Below, piece by piece: positions 31,922 to 64,000 of a stretch of DNA of 64,000 nucleotides. The position numbers and the translations under genes are program-made. Origin of the DNA: Alcaligenaceae bacterium (GTDB lineage Bacteria; Pseudomonadota; Gammaproteobacteria; Burkholderiales; Burkholderiaceae_B); contig JAUNUJ010000011.1 in assembly GCA_030538235.1 (NCBI GenBank), positions 1-64,000 of the forward strand, given 5' to 3'. The notes beneath the pieces were generated by a model. It had not been told where the DNA came from and ran no database searches. It was given only the letters and a program-made list of their open reading frames with translations. Each line of letters starts with the position of its first letter. The first letter of the stretch is position 1.

Positions 31922-34900
31922 TTACATTAAACGACCTATAAACTGAGCCAACTCTCTTTTCGAAGGATTATAACAATACCTCCATTCGTCTAGCCTATCT
32001 GTACTTATGAGTTTGGTTGCCTCTAAAATCAATTCATCAATTTCAGACTCTTCTCTATTATTTGGCTGCAAAAAATATGATATACATTTAGTAATTGCTA
32101 ATATCCACATAGAAACCTCTAATGCTCCATCCCATTTACTATAACTAGAGGTACTTGCTAGGGGCTGCTGAATCGTTCTTTTTGACTGAGTCAAACTTTT
32201 CCTTAAAGATTTTATTATGCGTAGCTGCTGCTCTTTACTAGCACCAGAAAATAAATAGGCAGAAATTCTTATGGACTGTCCCTGCACTGACTCTTTAAAC
32301 GTTCTTGAAATTTCGCCATCTTTCACTTCTATTATTGAGAATAAGTCAAAAAACCAGATCCTACAAAGAACATCAATATCTACTCGGTTGTCCTCAATTA
32401 AAGAGCCTAAAACGTCATTAAAACACCAAGGAAAACAACTAAATAGATTTGAATGCCTCCCTCGTGAAAGTTGAATTATTTGTTCCAACTCTTTACTTGA
32501 TAACTTAGAAGGCAATATCGATAATAAAAGATTGACTAGTTTTTGCCGAACCTGCTCCACAGGTTCATTTTTATAAAGCAGATGCTCAATTATCCAAACA
32601 AGAAATAGAACTTTATTCGCTTGAGGAATCCAATCAAGAGCCTCCAATATAATGGATAAGTCGCATGAGATCAATAATCTTTCTAATATTGCATAAAACC
32701 CCATCCATCGAAATACTCCGACATTACAACCCAATAGCGCTTTGAGTTGCGTATTAGTCATACACACCATTACCGATGGAACTATCTCACAAACCATCTG
32801 ACTCAAGACAGATAACCTATAAACATCCGAAATGCTTAGATTAGAAGCTAGCTTAGCTACCTCTTCTTCAGCTAACGCAATTAGGGCATTTGGGTCATAA
32901 TGCCAAAGTAATTTAATTGCGTAATAGTCAGATACTCTGAGCTTTTCATAACTAAACTCACGGCTCATGTGATGGGGTGATGGAAACCTATTTAAAAACC
33001 TCATTAACGGTTGTTTAAAGTCAATGGTTCCTATTCGTTTATCTTTGTCCTGAATTTCCTGAGATCTAATATATATAGACGAGTCTAGGAAAATTCTTAA
33101 ATTATCCAAAAAGTTAGTCATACCAATCAGCTCTGGGTAAGACTTATTAATAGCCCGTGAGCGTGCCAACAACTCGCTAATAATATGCCAATCTTCGACA
33201 AATGCCTCATAATCACGTTGATTAGCTATACTTTTAATAAAATCATGGCGATCACCTAACTTTAAATCTCCATCCTTCATTAAAGAAAGAGAATGCATTT
33301 TATCTTTAAGTTTTTGACCACTTAAGCCACACAAAGATGATTCGCTCGTCCATAAACTTAAAATACAACCAGCACGTTTACTATCGAGAAACTTAAGATC
33401 ATCTTGAGATACCTTCTTCATTTTGACTATAGAGGATGAATCATATAAAGTCTGTGTTGTAGTCAGTCCTGCGCTTTCTTTTTTATAAGTATTTTGAATT
33501 AATCTAGAAGCATACCTCTCAACCTCAAGTAAAACATCAGCTGGAATCGGTGTTATCAATAAAGGGAAATCTTCTGCTGCATTTTGCAAAGAGTTTGATA
33601 AATTATATCCTTTGATAGCCAATCCCTCTTCCCCCATAATTAAAATATATCTATCATGAAATTCACCCGCTTTTAAACCAAATAATTTAATTTTAAAATA
33701 TTTAAAATATCGACTATTTTCCTCTATACTATTTAGTAAACTATTAATCCTTACTGTATCTTTGCTATCTCCCTTGGCAAATGCACCACACTTTGTATAA
33801 CTTTCTGGCACAGAAGTAAAGACTAAATATTTAGCTTTGATTGAGGCATGCAACGACAGCAGTTCGACTCCTACTGAGTCAAAATAGGGGTCAAAAATAA
33901 TAATTTCATTTGTAGAGAAGTCGGAAAACAGTTTTTTAAACCATTCTGTTAACTCTAACTTGCCACTATTATTATCTCTGTTTCTGCTGAGAATAAATTT
34001 CCCTTCCGATTTAGAAGGGCTCAATAATGTCAACAGTGGTTTAAGCTCCTGATTAACTGACACCCATGGCTCAGACTTTCTAATACTAATGAGACTCTTA
34101 AACTTAGGATTATCTTGAGTTCTGGTTTGTGCGACTAATGCTCGTGTCTTCTCTATCTTTTTAAGGTTTCTCTCTAACCAGTTGTAATGTGCAGTCCTAT
34201 TATCAGAACTTAGCATGCTTGTACTTAGTTCAACCTCACGAATATAATACACACGATAGCGACAGCACAGTGAACTAACACCAGGCTTAGTATTCGCATA
34301 ACCATAAATCTCTACTTCTGTTGAATCTGAGAGCAGGTTTACATCATCACTGACTTCAAATTTATATTCGAAAACATATTCACTTATTTGATTAGCTAAA
34401 GCAATAGAAGAGTAAATTATTTGTTTTTGATTTTGTATACTAAGACGAAATTGAAATCCGTCAGGCTCAGGTAACTGCTGTGAATCTAATCTTACACAAA
34501 CTAAACCGCCAGCTTGTTGAAACTCAACATCAAGCAACTCTTTCTCACTAGCAGTTAGAGTTGGAAATTCTAATAACTCAAAATCTCCTAGTCGTATTTT
34601 ATCAGTCCCCCTAAAATCTAGACCTGTATCCAAATTGAGTTTACTGACGATCAACTCAATTAATTCAGCATCGTAGCAATCATCAACAATAATTAATTCA
34701 TTTTTATTTAATTGAATAATTGATGCACTTAAGGCTCCTGCAGAGCTATGCGGACTGCTGATAGAGTCATATTCATTGGCAGTCTGATTCAATAAATATG
34801 AAACGGGCTTATATGCTAAGTTGTTTTTATTTAAAGAAAAGCTACCAAATTGCTCATCGAACTCTGTAGGAAAGTTTAAATTAAGCTCAAAGTTTATTAT

Positions 34901-35221
34901 AGATAATGGCTTTCCTTCACATAACTTTTCAAGAAAAGATGCTGTTACATCACTTTTGATATAGAGATTAAGTTTCGTGATTTGCCATGCATCATTGTTG
35001 ATTCGTTCACTATATGACCATCGATTATTCGAATAAGTATAAGGAACTAGCCGACCATAAACAAGCCTCAACTCCACCCCATCTACAGTCGACAGTCGTA
35101 AGAGCCATAACTGAATTGCACATTCTTTCTTTTTATCAGAAAAGAGTCTCAATAATCTTGAATCTTCAACTAAATCAGTTAGCTTGAACGAAACTCCTTC
35201 TAAGTTTAGCTTAGGATTCAA
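31922..35221 (-). CDS. Large protein with PLD-like segment, possible defence protein (VPA1262-like)
   Basis: The 1099-residue product is not assigned with confidence. Residues about 1-130 (ECAIQLWLLRLSTVDGVELRLVYGRLVPY) recall the N-terminal domain of 'VPA1262 family' proteins, from memory only. Around residues 430-570 there is a phospholipase-D-like half: EIIIFDPYFDSVGVELL, then EFHDRYILIMGEEGLAIKGYNLSNSLQNAAEDFPLL, where HDR...KGYNLSNS matches the second PLD/TFIIS-like catalytic lobe (His then Lys/Asn), although the canonical HxK is altered. The rest (about 600-1099) is helical and Leu-rich. TTG start with AAGGGG seven bases upstream. It is monocistronic and much AT-richer than scpB, suggesting acquisition. 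Confidence 0.5.
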   Translation of the reverse strand: MNPKLNLEGVSFKLTDLVEDSRLLRLFSDKKKECAIQLWLLRLSTVDGVELRLVYGRLVPYTYSNNRWSYSERINNDAWQITKLNLYIKSDVTASFLEKLCEGKPLSIINFELNLNFPTEFDEQFGSFSLNKNNLAYKPVSYLLNQTANEYDSISSPHSSAGALSASIIQLNKNELIIVDDCYDAELIELIVSKLNLDTGLDFRGTDKIRLGDFELLEFPTLTASEKELLDVEFQQAGGLVCVRLDSQQLPEPDGFQFRLSIQNQKQIIYSSIALANQISEYVFEYKFEVSDDVNLLSDSTEVEIYGYANTKPGVSSLCCRYRVYYIREVELSTSMLSSDNRTAHYNWLERNLKKIEKTRALVAQTRTQDNPKFKSLISIRKSEPWVSVNQELKPLLTLLSPSKSEGKFILSRNRDNNSGKLELTEWFKKLFSDFSTNEIIIFDPYFDSVGVELLSLHASIKAKYLVFTSVPESYTKCGAFAKGDSKDTVRINSLLNSIEENSRYFKYFKIKLFGLKAGEFHDRYILIMGEEGLAIKGYNLSNSLQNAAEDFPLLITPIPADVLLEVERYASRLIQNTYKKESAGLTTTQTLYDSSSIVKMKKVSQDDLKFLDSKRAGCILSLWTSESSLCGLSGQKLKDKMHSLSLMKDGDLKLGDRHDFIKSIANQRDYEAFVEDWHIISELLARSRAINKSYPELIGMTNFLDNLRIFLDSSIYIRSQEIQDKDKRIGTIDFKQPLMRFLNRFPSPHHMSREFSYEKLRVSDYYAIKLLWHYDPNALIALAEEEVAKLASNLSISDVYRLSVLSQMVCEIVPSVMVCMTNTQLKALLGCNVGVFRWMGFYAILERLLISCDLSIILEALDWIPQANKVLFLVWIIEHLLYKNEPVEQVRQKLVNLLLSILPSKLSSKELEQIIQLSRGRHSNLFSCFPWCFNDVLGSLIEDNRVDIDVLCRIWFFDLFSIIEVKDGEISRTFKESVQGQSIRISAYLFSGASKEQQLRIIKSLRKSLTQSKRTIQQPLASTSSYSKWDGALEVSMWILAITKCISYFLQPNNREESEIDELILEATKLISTDRLDEWRYCYNPSKRELAQFIGRLM

Positions 35222-58613: not shown

Positions 58614-59771
58614 GTTCCGGCTAGAACTCATATCTCAATCAGTTATACTCTCGCATCGTTGAACCACTTCTCGGACTGCGTTCCGGCTAGAGCTCATATC
58701 TCAATCAGTTATACTGCATATCGCCCCGTTCTGTTCTGATTCCTTGTTCCGGCTAGAGCTCATATCTCAATCAGTTATACTAGGCCGTGGGCGACCGGCA
58801 GTTGCTGACAAGTTCCGGCTAGAGCTCATATCTCAATCAGTTATACTGATGAAGCCTCGCAATTGGATACATTTGTAGTTCCGGCTAGAGCTCATATCTC
58901 AATCAGTTATACTTTGAATTGCATATCACGGTGCAAACGCAAAGTTCCGGCTAGAGCTCATATCTCAATCAGTTATACTTGCTCCACTGCTTTGGATATT
59001 TGGTTTCATGTTCCGGCTAGAGCTCATATCTCAATCAGTTATACTTTTACTCATAAAGATAACATTCCGGGTTCTGTTCCGGCTAGAGCTCATATCTCAA
59101 TCAGTTATACTTTGATCTTCCGTAATAACCGGTAGTTCTGAGTTCCGGCTAGAGCTCATATCTCAATCAGTTATACTCCCATACTGTACAGATGAACTCG
59201 GGCAGTTGTTCCGGCTAGAGCTCATATCTCAATCAGTTATACTAGATCATCAAACATATAAACCATGCTGCTAGTTCCGGCTAGAGCTCATATCTCAATC
59301 AGTTATACTTCAGTTACGGTTTTTGCGAGCCTTTATTCAGTTCCGGCTAGAGCTCATATCTCAATCAGTTATACTACAGCGGCTTTAGCTGCTCTGCGGT
59401 CTCTAGTTCCGGCTAGAGCTCATATCTCAATCAGTTATACTCGAAGGAGCTTCCAAACCTGCCTCAACTAAGTTCCGGCTAGAGCTCATATCTCAATCAG
59501 TTATACTTCAATCAGTGGTTGTACATGAGCTAGCTCAGTTCCGGCTAGAGCTCATATCTCAATCAGTTATACTAAGGTGATTGCACGCCGGTAGAATTAG
59601 CCAGTTCCGGCTAGAGCTCATATCTCAATCAGTTATACTCACGATGGCTAAGATTGCCGCACGCGACAAGTTCCGGCTAGAGCTCATATCTCAATCAGTT
59701 ATACTCTATCCCGATTTCGCATCAGCGCCTAATGTGTTCCGGCTAGAGCTCATATCTCAATCAGTTATACT
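58614..59771 (+). CRISPR. Type II-C CRISPR array, 18 repeats, 17 spacers
   Basis: 36-base repeats beginning GTTCCGGCTAGAGC and ending CAGTTATACT alternate with 17 spacers that are all 30 bases, a 66-base period from 58614 to 59771. Seventeen repeats are identical; the first (58614-58649) has A for G at the tenth-to-thirteenth base block (AGAACTC for AGAGCTC). The conserved TATACT end can act as a -10 element that drives each spacer unit in the plus direction, as known for Neisseria type II-C arrays. There is no conventional leader: the AraC stop is only 28 bases before the array. Confidence 0.97.
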
Positions 59772-59839: not shown

Positions 59840-60166
59840 TCAGAACAATTCAAATTGATCCGGTGATTTTTTATCGGGCTGTTGTACTTGCCCATGAAAA
59901 GATATAATTCTTTCATACTGTTTATCCGTTAATTGCATAATATTAACTTTGCCACCCTTAGGTAAGGCTCTCTGAATTTTTTGACAACACGTATCAATTT
60001 GTTTGGCACTCGAAAAGAATCGCATATACACACTAAACTGCGCCATTTCGAATCCTTGATCTAATAAGAAGTTGCGGAATTCAGTAGCTTCTTGTCTTTC
60101 TGCCTTCTGACTAACAGGTAAATCAAACATGACAACAATCCACATAAGCCTATACCCCGATAACAT
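59840..60166 (-). CDS. cas2: CRISPR-associated endonuclease Cas2
   Basis: The 108-residue ferredoxin-fold protein is type II Cas2: WIVVMFDLPVSQKAERQEATEFRNFLLDQGFEMAQFSVYMRFFSS with the catalytic-site Asp at D15. It dimerises and bridges Cas1 dimers during spacer capture. GGAGG lies six bases before the ATG. It is last in cas9-cas1-cas2 and faces the array. Confidence 0.96.
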   Translation of the reverse strand: MLSGYRLMWIVVMFDLPVSQKAERQEATEFRNFLLDQGFEMAQFSVYMRFFSSAKQIDTCCQKIQRALPKGGKVNIMQLTDKQYERIISFHGQVQQPDKKSPDQFELF

Positions 60167-60175
60167 GCCAGCCTC

Positions 60176-61096
60176 CTAAATGATATCCCCTAATGCAAAG
60201 GGTTCACTAACAAGTGGTAAATCCAACCTATCTTTTTCACCTAGAAAAACTTTCGCTAAAGAGACCGCCAGTTTTTGAGCGCACACTGTTACTGGGGTCG
60301 CTCCAGCTTGAGTTAACATATCGGAATACATGATACGAACTAATACTCTTTTTGTATCTGGCGTGATTTCACATAAGTCTTTCTGCGCTAATCTAAACAC
60401 GCCTAAATCTACTAAAGGACGAAAAGGCTCAATTAAATCATCTACCAATCGCATAGCATTTAACGCATTACTATGGTGCAAGCCGATTGCCGGGTGAAGT
60501 CCTGCCGCAACAACGGCTCTAGCTACAGTAGCACGTAATACTGTATAACCATAATTCAACAAAGCATTAATATCATCGGCTTCTCTGTTTCTTCGAAATG
60601 AGTTGCCAAATAATAAAGTCCAGTATCTACGCGCTGCTTGAGCTTCAATATTATCAGGATCACCACTTCTAACTTTTTTAATCAATGAAGAAACTGGGAC
60701 ACTTGGCTCTCCAATAGCATTTAAAACACTGACTTGTTGCTCTAATTTACTCCGAACTATACTTGCCCAAAGTTGTTTTTTTAAAGGGCGTTTGGCCTCA
60801 ATTTGTGCGTCAATTCGTTTTGAGGTCTCATAATTACCATCAATTGGCCAAAGCATACCAACAGCATTATGGTTTGATGCACATAAAACAAAAGGAGATC
60901 CTTGTTCCGCTAGAGCTACTAACAAATTATTTGAATATGAAAGGCCATGACTATTCGCAATCACAGCACAGATATCATCAATAGGTACACGGCCTATTTC
61001 TTGCCCCTCGCCTTCTGTGCTTTTGACTAACAAAAAACCTCTGAATAAAGACAAATGGCGATAATTCTCAGCAATTTCAACTATTCGTCCTACCAT
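60176..61096 (-). CDS. cas1: CRISPR-associated integrase Cas1 (type II)
   Basis: The 306-residue integrase shows the Cas1 metal ligands: E151 (NIEAQAARRYWTLLFG), H207 (GLHPAIGLHHSN) and D219/D220 (MRLVDDLIEPFRP). GRIVEIAENYRHLSLFRGFLLV opens the type II form. It inserts new spacers with Cas2. Its ribosome site AAGGAG is inside the end of cas9, so translation is coupled. All catalytic residues are present. Confidence 0.96.
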   Translation of the reverse strand: MVGRIVEIAENYRHLSLFRGFLLVKSTEGEGQEIGRVPIDDICAVIANSHGLSYSNNLLVALAEQGSPFVLCASNHNAVGMLWPIDGNYETSKRIDAQIEAKRPLKKQLWASIVRSKLEQQVSVLNAIGEPSVPVSSLIKKVRSGDPDNIEAQAARRYWTLLFGNSFRRNREADDINALLNYGYTVLRATVARAVVAAGLHPAIGLHHSNALNAMRLVDDLIEPFRPLVDLGVFRLAQKDLCEITPDTKRVLVRIMYSDMLTQAGATPVTVCAQKLAVSLAKVFLGEKDRLDLPLVSEPFALGDII

Positions 61097-61102
61097 AGCC
61101 TA

Positions 61103-64000
61103 TTACTCCTTAAATCCTGGATCTCTAAGTTTTCCAGTGATTGAAATAGTAACTTGACGCGCACGAGCTTTTTGAAGCGAACTTGCTTTTTTACTCACAT
61201 AATTAAATGGATCTTTTTTATCTCTATTACGAGCATCCACATTTGCCTCATTATGAGGAGCCAAGAATATTTGTCCATTACTGCTTATTGTACACACTCG
61301 AAAAACTTGTTCAAGCCCATTATGTTCTAAACGTAGCATATCCCCTCTCATTAAGCGCATAACTAAAGGGCTACCATTTTGTGCTTTAAATTTATTACGC
61401 AATTGAGAAACATCACCCGACTTACGAACGATCTGATAAGCCTGGTAAGTTGAAACAATCATAGATTGCCATTTCCCATCTTCTTTTCTATAGATTTCAA
61501 TACAGTAATTGCTATCACCTTTGTATGCTTTATAAGGCTTAGGGGATCCATCAAAAAGCACGCCATGACGTTCTATAGCCTTATTACTTGAAATTGGAAT
61601 GACGGCCTTTAAGTTTTCTACTACCTCAACACGTTTACCATCTTCCAGTTTATGATGTCTAACTCGTCCCCCTCCTAATAGACCATAGGCCGTTTCATTG
61701 TGCATCGCTCCTTGATGACCATGCTCTGGTTTATGACTGACCCAAATATTTTCAATAGCACGGCTTACATGATTCTGATATGTGGGCCAAGGTAAAGCCA
61801 AACCCTCTAATAAACGACTTTTTTCTTGTTTTCGTGCATTTTGATTTGCCTTAACAACTCGCTGCAACAATGAAGGATCCGTAACACCAATTACACAAGC
61901 ATCAATTGCATGGTGGCGGTGATCATAACGATTCTTTTCACCGTTAACATCCAATATATGATTTAAACCAAAGTGCCTTCTCAACATGGCGGTCAATTGT
62001 CCCGGAATGACCCATGTGTTTGCGGGACAAATCGCAGTTACATACTCTCTTACGACTTTACTCAAATACCTCGTATCATTAAGGGCCTTCGCTAAAAACT
62101 CCTCTTGGTTTAACCATTGTTGAAGGCCATCTGGGGCAAAACGATACATTTTTTCTTTTTTCATACTCTTAGCACGCAAAAGAATTTTTTCATACTCATA
62201 GCCTTGGATAGGATTAATACCAAACGCCTCGTAAGGTGTTCTATTAGCTTTAAACTTATTGACTTTGCGCAATGCTAAAGTCTTGTTATTCATACTGTCA
62301 TCCAAGGTTTTTGAGAATGGTAATATATGCTCTATTTCAACCTCTCCATTAGGAGAAAACAATTTCTCAATGCTAATGTGCTCTCCAGAATATGGGCAAA
62401 CCCTATCCATGGGATTAAAAGCCAGTTCTTCCCATAAAATCATTTTCTGTAAATCAGCTAGACTAACTAAATAATCTGGTTTACCAGTGCATTTTGAAAT
62501 TTCTTTTCTTCTTAATTCGTTTTTCTGGGCATTGATTTGTTGCTCTTTTCTAATCCTCTCTCGTTCTTTCTTACCGCGTTTAAGATCTCGTGCTAACTCA
62601 ATAACAACTTGTGTCGGGTGACCATATTCCTTGATTAGCTGATTAACTAAACCTCATACTTGATTTAACCCTATATGAACTGTTGGGTTATTAATTTTGC
62701 CATAGCGTACTTCAGGAATGTCTTCAGGATTGCTCGTACCAAATCCTACCTGTCTTTGCAAAATTTCACCGTAGTATGGTAATTCATCTAATATTTCACC
62801 ATCAGCACTTTTATCTAAAACACTGTGACTCTCAAACCCAGCTGCCACTACGGCTTTATCATAAGTAATGACACTCTCTTTAAGCTTAGGCAAAATAAGA
62901 TTTAATGCTCTCTCAGACAGTGCTCCGTAACCACTCTGTAAAGAGGTGTTGGCAATAAGCTTTGCAGTCTCTTGGGTTACCTCAGTATTAATTGTTAACC
63001 AAGTGATTAACTCACTTTCATTTTCAAGCTCTAATAGCTGTTTAACAATTTCTGTTTGTTTAACAAGACCGAATTTAAACCATTTAGTCCCAAATAAATT
63101 TTTGCCACTTAAAATAGCTGAGGTAGTATTACCCAACACCTCTACGTTATTCTCATCCTCGCCACTAAACCTAACCGTACTAGGAAAATTAAGTACTTTA
63201 CGTAATTGAGTGAATGTACGTTTTTTATATTTTTCCAATTCTTGTACAATTAAATCTCGTTGTTCAAGTGTTAACTCTATCGGCAACAATTGCTCATTCA
63301 AATAACGTAAATGATTCGCTGTTTGATAGATTCTAGACTGCTGCACAAAAGGCAATGCTAGCGCTGCACGCTTCTCGTCAGTTAAAAAGGTACAGCGACC
63401 CGGATCAACCGGCCTTAAAGGGCGTTGAAATAATAATGTGTACTTAAGTCTCTGCTTTGCTTCGTAGTTATAAAGCTTGGGATTATATCGCTGTTGAACA
63501 GTCCACAATTGCTCAAACTCATCCTCAACCATGCTACGATCTATATAAAAATCGTAGTTTTTATCTTTTTTATTCCTACCACTTTCTTGTGGGATTAATG
63601 TTGTTCGTAATCGAGCTCTTACAGTTTTACCTTTAAGCATGCGCTGATAAAGGACTTCACCTACTGTACGTGCACCAACAGATTTTAAATACGTTTTAAA
63701 ATCTGCTATCGCTGCTTTCATAACACTATTTTCATTATCTACTTTATCTGTTTTACGATTACTTTTAAAACCACGACGCTGATTGATATGGAATAAAGCT
63801 CGTCCAAACTCTTCTGGAGTCAGAGCATGGTCAAGCCCCCTAGCTCTTAATTCATATGGATTCAATTTAACTAAGGCCTTGCGTTGTTGCTCATCTTCAG
63901 GAAAAAAACCATATCTTACTAACTGACGTAGCATAGTGTTTTTCCGTTGTAAAAGACGATCTCTACGACGACGGGCTGAACGCGCATCTCGTCTAGATAC
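61103..64000 (-). pseudogene. cas9: Type II-C Cas9, partial, interrupted by an in-frame TGA
   Basis: The frame runs 966 codons from the window edge, starting at the Arg-rich bridge helix (RRDARSARRRRDR); the RuvC-I N-terminus is outside. A single TGA at 62654-62656 splits it without changing frame: upstream GLNQV, downstream GLVNQLIKEYG, where a CGA Arg codon is expected. After it come RuvC-II (VVIELARDL, Glu at 62597-62599), HNH (CPYSGEHI...VEIEHILPFS, catalytic His near 62328) and RuvC-III (HHAIDACVIG, near 61902-61916). Size and the compact HNH fit type II-C. The TGA would remove RuvC-II, HNH and the PAM-interacting part unless read through. No csn2 or cas4 is present. Confidence 0.93.

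What the first reader, a model, noticed from the sequence alone, without database searches (positions are those of the whole stretch)
62650..62660. One in-frame TGA splits an otherwise intact type II-C cas9
Reading frame 61103-64000 is continuous except for TGA at 62654-62656. The upstream and downstream protein segments join seamlessly in the same frame, and the codon can be explained by one C-to-T change (CGA to TGA). cas1 and cas2 have all catalytic residues and 17 of 18 repeats are identical, so the loss looks recent, or the stop may be read through, or it may be a sequencing error. If real, the chain would end before RuvC-II and HNH. An independent C-terminal half could start at the ATG at 62443, a possible natural split Cas9.
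Basis: partly seen in the sequence, partly recalled or inferred. Interest (0 to 1): 0.75.

Follow-up and report, generated by a model that had tools for sequence, protein, structure and literature searches.

The report
Nonsense-broken cas9 in intact CRISPR locus
A bacterial CRISPR immune locus carries one stop codon in the middle of its otherwise well-preserved cutting enzyme, most likely a recent loss of function (or possibly a sequence error), which is an ordinary kind of event and not a new type of split enzyme.

Summary
Confirmed: the minus-strand cas9 frame (ATG at contig position 64168, outside the window, to 61103) has one internal stop, TGA at 62654-62656, codon 505 of 1021. Of 50 full-length Cas9 frames compared, 49 have Arg there and one Gly. 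The N piece (504 aa) ends before RuvC-II, HNH and RuvC-III.

cas1, cas2, the array (17 of 18 repeats identical) and a tracrRNA just beyond the window look intact. Apart from the stop, cas9 deviates at 1 of 61 columns invariant in 28 relatives, and its branch is not long. So the lesion is very young, or an assembly error; reads were not available.

Readthrough lacks support: tRNA-Sec is present, but no homolog has Cys there and no clear SECIS hairpin follows. A split from ATG 62443 fails: that piece starts behind RuvC-II. No self-targeting spacer was found. Both upstream neighbours are truncated remnants.

Naturally broken, even split, cas9 genes are in print. One oddity: two other broken Cas9s (a frameshift, an IS insertion) break at the same codon pair; nominal p about 0.001, post hoc.

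The parts
62654..62656 (-). in-frame TGA, codon 505 of the cas9 frame; Arg in 49 of 50 other full-length frames compared
61103..64000 (-). cas9 frame (continues to ATG at contig position 64168, outside the window)
62657..64000 (-). N piece of Cas9 (504 aa in all, 448 of them in the window): RuvC-I, arginine-rich helix, REC region
   Evidence: domain names of the N piece are recalled
62585..62602 (-). RuvC-II motif IELARD (codons 523-528, Glu524), behind the stop and ahead of ATG 62443
   Evidence: motif name recalled
61103..62443 (-). ORF of 446 aa from the first ATG behind the stop; HNH and RuvC-III but no RuvC-II
62231..62398 (-). HNH domain (PF13395)
61730..62107 (-). RuvC-III (PF18541)
60176..61096 (-). 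cas1, type II (TIGR03639), open frame of 306 aa
59840..60166 (-). cas2, open frame of 108 aa
58614..59771 (+). CRISPR array: 18 repeats of 36 nt, 17 spacers of 30 nt; first repeat has one mismatch; crRNA strand is + (inferred from the tracrRNA pairing)

Best explanation
A type II-C CRISPR-Cas locus (cas9-cas1-cas2, array, tracrRNA) whose cas9 has very recently acquired a nonsense codon in the sampled genome. Translation ends after 504 residues, giving RuvC-I plus the REC region without RuvC-II, HNH, RuvC-III or the C-terminal part. Inferred: no target cleavage and no PAM reading, so interference is off, while crRNAs and tracrRNA may still be made. Spacer uptake probably stalls too, since type II adaptation needs Cas9 (recalled). 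The locus has not yet had time to decay further.
For: One internal stop only, all else in frame. A conserved Arg position (49 of 50 frames). Own Cas9 deviates at 1 of 61 columns invariant in 28 relatives (R694K); the relatives themselves deviate at 0 to 12 each. With a narrower set of 19: own 1 of 97, relatives 0 to 7. Both halves track the relatives alike (identities by halves correlate 0.97 over 50 frames) and have the same G+C, 0.379 and 0.380, so they are one gene. Own branch 0.5 against about 0.49 to 0.74 from the same node in the sister clade. Repeat:tracrRNA duplex -41.8 kcal/mol against -15.3 (sd 3.3) for 200 shuffles. Both genes upstream of cas9 are truncated remnants, which fits an island in decay. 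Of 30 other window proteins scanned, 14 reach a curated NCBIfam cut-off and each of these covers at least 86% of its model, so lesions are not common in this contig. Other natural cas9 breaks are in print (passages).
Against: No reads and no second strain, so a consensus error is not excluded. No self-targeting spacer was found, so the best-known reason for losing cas9 is absent. A tRNA-Sec gene exists, so UGA may be read as an amino acid somewhere in this genome. So few deviations cannot tell a lesion of a few generations from an error. In a five-relative subset own deviates at 48 columns against 12 to 42 for the others; I put this down to own being the outgroup of that clade.
Confidence: 0.64

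Rival explanations
1. Assembly or consensus error: the population carries an intact cas9 and the TGA is a wrong or minority base in a metagenome-derived contig.
For: Gene otherwise pristine. 14 contigs and no 16S found, so probably a MAG. In another genome, G1305, two contigs end on either side of the same conserved motif, a hint that this stretch can trouble assemblers.
Against: A single clean substitution, no indel. Within 60 nt of this site the longest exact DNA match to any other locus compared is 13 nt, so a k-mer collision with those is unlikely. The 14 window proteins that could be judged show no lesion. The two neighbouring truncations are too large to be base errors.
Confidence: 0.26
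2. UGA is read through (near-cognate tRNA or selenocysteine), giving little full-length Cas9 and mostly the 504-residue piece.
For: tRNA-Sec with anticodon UCA in the genome (ARAGORN; Rfam RF01852, 72.9 bits against a gathering score of 47). Gly occurs at this position in one other Cas9, so it may tolerate substitution. Constraint is kept on both halves.
Against: Arg in 49 of 50, Cys in 0 of 50; Sec normally pairs with Cys homologs (passages of PMC1088965). Three stretches around the UGA fold with z 0.68, 0.41 and -0.98 (25 of 200 shuffles as stable as the last); only ungapped stems of 4 to 5 pairs were found behind it. TGA ends 10 of 48 window ORFs counted. Constraint on both halves is also expected of a very young lesion.
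Confidence: 0.06
3. Natural split Cas9: two separately translated pieces assemble, the second from ATG 62443.
For: A split cas9 in L. salivarius NCK 1355 showed some activity in a cell-free test (passages of PMC11288051).
Against: The second piece starts at codon 576, behind RuvC-II, so Glu524 is in neither piece; there is no ATG, GTG or TTG between (rare starts ATC and ATT do occur); by eye the 30 nt before the ATG hold no ribosome site. Among the relatives inspected the two-piece layouts are a frameshift and an IS insertion, not a conserved trait.
Confidence: 0.02

Closest known systems
[quoted passage not shown]
   Same: Gene order, Cas9 pieces at 289.6 and 261 bits against a cut-off of 100, type II cas1, repeat-tracrRNA pairing, mutated first repeat as in 60% of II-C arrays (passages of PMC12080349)
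   Different: One in-frame stop at codon 505
Natural cas9 disruptions: Mycoplasma arthritidis 158L3_1 (PMC6882279) and CampyICE1 (PMC8743540)
   Same: cas9 broken by frameshift or stop codons inside an otherwise recognisable locus (passages)
   Different: M. arthritidis has a self-targeting spacer; none was found here. Here the rest of the gene is pristine
Split cas9 of Ligilactobacillus salivarius NCK 1355 (PMC11288051)
   Same: cas9 in two reading frames (passages)
   Different: Type II-A; two distinct coding sequences with some cell-free activity; here the possible second piece lacks RuvC-II

Membership tests
Type II-C CRISPR-Cas | cas9, cas1 and cas2 without csn2 or cas4 | tested here: met
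   Next to cas9 lie cas1, cas2 and the array on one side and two non-cas remnants on the other; no csn2- or cas4-like match among the neighbours scanned
Type II-C CRISPR-Cas | tracrRNA that pairs with the repeat | tested here: met
   Anti-repeat at contig 64224-64260, duplex -41.8 kcal/mol in 64221-64330
Type II-C CRISPR-Cas | full-length Cas9 with RuvC-I, -II, -III and HNH in one chain | tested here: not met
   all motifs are encoded, but a stop at codon 505 separates RuvC-I from the rest
Type II-C CRISPR-Cas | interference activity | not testable with these tools
   needs experiment
Selenoprotein | Cys homologs at the UGA position | tested here: not met
   0 of 50
Selenoprotein | SECIS hairpin just behind the UGA | tested here: not met
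   z 0.68, 0.41 and -0.98, weak stems only; no dedicated SECIS program was available
Selenoprotein | Sec machinery in the genome | tested here: inconclusive
   tRNA-Sec present; selA, selB and selD not searched
Natural split Cas9 | two pieces that together hold all catalytic motifs | tested here: not met
   RuvC-II in neither piece when the second starts at ATG 62443
Inactivated cas9 allele (pseudogene) | disrupting change absent from intact homologs | tested here: met
   50 of 50 other full-length frames have a residue there
Inactivated cas9 allele (pseudogene) | change present in the organism, not only in the assembly | not testable with these tools
   needs reads

The most novel reading that the evidence does not exclude
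Codons 504/505 (motif NPTVHIGLNQ[V/I/L]-R, a highly conserved stretch of Cas9) are a recurrent breakage site: this TGA, a one-base frameshift in L020 and an IS insertion in L066 hit the same codon pair, perhaps because some mobile-element or phage-borne agent aims at this conserved stretch of cas9.
Probability: 0.06. Interest if true: 0.7.

Novelty: new member of a known kind. Interest (0 to 1): 0.2.

Why it matters
If real, it is a snapshot of a CRISPR-Cas9 system switched off so recently that array, tracrRNA and the rest of cas9 are still intact, useful for studying how bacteria drop immunity without a self-targeting spacer. If an error, it is a reminder to check reads before calling cas9 pseudogenes or split Cas9s in metagenome-derived genomes. 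Neither changes what is known of Cas9.

Tried and rejected
Self-targeting as the reason for loss: the whole array against the own genome gave, besides itself and the tracrRNA anti-repeat, six matches of 15 to 22 nt; rejected as far as this assembly goes.

Protospacers: the array against phages (2 records, E 4) and plasmids (5 records: one related array in Limnohabitans, four weak Sinorhizobium matches); 24 of the 30 nt of 6 of the 17 spacers exactly against viral contigs, 0 matches each. The other 11 spacers were not scanned there. No evidence on age.

Two unrelated genes joined by mis-assembly: rejected, since identities of the two halves to 50 frames correlate 0.97 and composition is the same.

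Conserved split in relatives: L020 (two ORFs) is a one-base frameshift; L027 is interrupted by a run of unknown bases, not split; L066 is an IS insertion with the C half not found; G1305 is a contig gap.

Hotspot test: nine first lesions were in mind for the simulation (own, L020, L066, L067, L068, L069, L070, L128 and G021). Small remnants and contig-edge or split-contig pieces (G577/G835, L127, L129, L012, G306, G303, G1305, G1292, G1298, G1243, G1262) were left out, and G1085 and G202 were not examined. Three within one codon: 0.0006 for n = 9, 0.0015 for n = 12. Post hoc, uniform model; not relied on. A tblastn extension of L066 past the stop was checked and is spurious.

I recounted with all of them; the conclusions stand, and the recount is what I cite. 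In one search my duplicate filter in turn lost one gene (L064/L081), which has Arg at the site. One of the 50 frames (L053, G021) has an N-terminal frame break.

Host name: not found. 16S not found; IF-2 in the window is nearest to PDB 7uiu (that this is Pseudomonas aeruginosa is recalled). The genome collection hides names; Cas9 relatives at 54-58% lie in the same family or order.

Literature: the first search was too broad; later ones gave the papers cited. Of the papers I saw only listings and passages. Whether this very locus is in print was not searched.

Full report
Observation. The minus-strand frame 61103-64000 continues past the window to an ATG at contig position 64168 (L002). It has 1021 codons and one internal stop, TGA at 62654-62656, codon 505. 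The search of the whole genome with TIGR01865 finds a single Cas9 with '1 TGA' inside. The N piece scores 289.6 and the ORF from ATG 62443 scores 261 bits against that family's cut-off of 100. HNH and RuvC-III are recognised in the C part; RuvC-II (IELARD, codons 523-528; motif name recalled) lies between the stop and the ATG.

The locus. cas1 (60176-61096) and cas2 (59840-60166) are open frames of type II families. The array 58614-59771 has 18 repeats of 36 nt and 17 spacers of 30 nt; only the first repeat differs, by one base. A tracrRNA anti-repeat lies just beyond the window at 64224-64260 and pairs with the repeat at -41.8 kcal/mol against -15.3 (sd 3.3) for 200 shuffles; with the mutated first repeat it is -35.1; a hairpin resembling a terminator follows. 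[quoted passage not shown] In II-C systems the first repeat is the oldest and carries at least one mutation in 60% of cases, and new spacers enter at the last repeat (passages of PMC12080349). The array therefore looks ordinary.

What the stop replaces. Among 50 other full-length Cas9 frames of the loci held, the position is Arg in 49 and Gly in 1; a first count with a narrower filter gave 39 and 1 of 40. The closest are 54 to 59% identical. Of the seven other genomes of the genus searched with the N piece only G005 matches, and its Cas9 (L036) is 25 to 26% identical, another lineage. The same stop cannot be looked for in close strains with this collection, which holds one genome per species.

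Age of the lesion. Own protein (X at the stop) was aligned with 28 relatives of at least 33% mean identity. It deviates at 1 of 61 columns that are invariant in the others (R694K); the relatives deviate at 0 to 12. With a narrower set of 19 it was 1 of 97, relatives 0 to 7. In a five-relative subset own deviates at 48 columns against 12 to 42 for the others. Own is the outgroup of that clade, and the tree (41 rows, narrower set) gives it 0.5 against about 0.49 to 0.74 from the same node (sums of printed lengths), so I read this as position in the tree, not as relaxed constraint. Composition is the same in the two halves, and identities of the halves to 50 frames correlate 0.97. The gene was under constraint until very recently.

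How unusual. In 399 genomes of the order, 47 have a Cas9 over the cut-off; own is the only nearly full-length frame cut by one stop, while G392 has a C part with four stops and a few others are broken by frameshifts. In 398 genomes of the phylum 39 have one, in 390 of the order of G118 29, in 336 of the order of G110 41, and 20 of 20 in the genomes chosen for having one. These samples overlap. In one search two small pieces also carry a stop (G1491, G1350). Broken Cas9s are a small minority.

Neighbours. Upstream of cas9, a 193-aa ORF matches only the last part (336-492 of 497) of PADLOC PDC-S24, and a DnaJ-like ORF has lost its 5' part and carries a TAA near its remaining start; its homologs in three genomes of the genus have 375-aa frames. 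The two remnants are divergent and have both lost their 5' parts, as after one deletion of their shared upstream region (inference). So this flank of the locus is truly decayed, which lends weight to a real lesion in cas9. I scanned 30 of the 51 ORFs listed against NCBIfam: 14 reach a curated cut-off, each over at least 86% of its model (RluB the lowest), 13 have only hits below a cut-off and cannot be judged, and 3 have no hit.

Readthrough. The genome has a tRNA-Sec gene, one of 32 tRNA matches, all of which were typed; no other has anticodon UCA. Sec is not supported: no Cys homolog, and no fold around the UGA that stands out (z 0.68, 0.41, -0.98; weak stems), whereas Sec/Cys pairing and a stem-loop just behind the TGA are expected (passages of PMC1088965). 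TGA ends 10 of 48 window ORFs counted.

Split. A natural split cas9 with some cell-free activity is in print for L. salivarius NCK 1355 (passages of PMC11288051). Here the ATG at 62443 would give a piece without RuvC-II, and no ATG, GTG or TTG lies nearer to the stop.

An oddity. L020 (a Rhodobacteraceae MAG) has a one-base frameshift in the codon that corresponds to 504. L066 (G882, order of G118) has an IS3-like element (family recalled from its two-ORF layout) directly behind ...HVGLNQ, and its C half is not found at E 1e-12. With nine first lesions, three within one codon have a nominal chance of 0.0006. In G1305 one contig ends and another starts on either side of the same motif. This was seen after the fact, with a hand-made list, and two of the three are MAGs or probably so. 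I record it as a lead.

Verdict. Most likely a recent nonsense lesion of an ordinary II-C cas9 (0.64), next an assembly or consensus error (0.26). Shown: the stop, its uniqueness in the frame, the intact remainder, the conserved Arg, no self-target in this assembly. Inferred: truncation, loss of interference, recency in the organism.

Noticed in passing
L020:5980-6000 and L066:5591-5604, against window 62654-62659: Two other broken Cas9s, by a frameshift and by an IS3-like insertion, break at the same codon pair as the TGA here.
   Followed up: partly
L002:4379-4960 (contig 64378-64959): ORF upstream of cas9 matches only the C-terminal part (336-492 of 497) of the candidate defence protein PDC-S24: a truncated remnant.
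   Followed up: partly
L002:4976-5700 (contig 64975-65699): DnaJ-like gene with lost 5' part and an in-frame TAA; 375-aa frames in three same-genus genomes.
   Followed up: partly
G000:C1:149370-149460 (L125): tRNA-Sec (UCA) gene in the own genome.
   Followed up: yes
L071 end and L072 start (G1305): Two contigs of one Cas9 stop on either side of the motif that relatives spell PTVHIGLNQV; about 10 codons are missing between them, judged from relatives.
   Followed up: partly
window 31922-35221: VPA1262 family protein (1099 aa) beside polysaccharide genes.
   Followed up: no
NZ_AP027057.1:51526-52741: Limnohabitans plasmid with a similar repeat array (97% covered, 66% identity).
   Followed up: no
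L012 (G027): 33-residue Cas9 remnant, 73% identical, in a genome of the same family with no other match to the N piece.
   Followed up: partly
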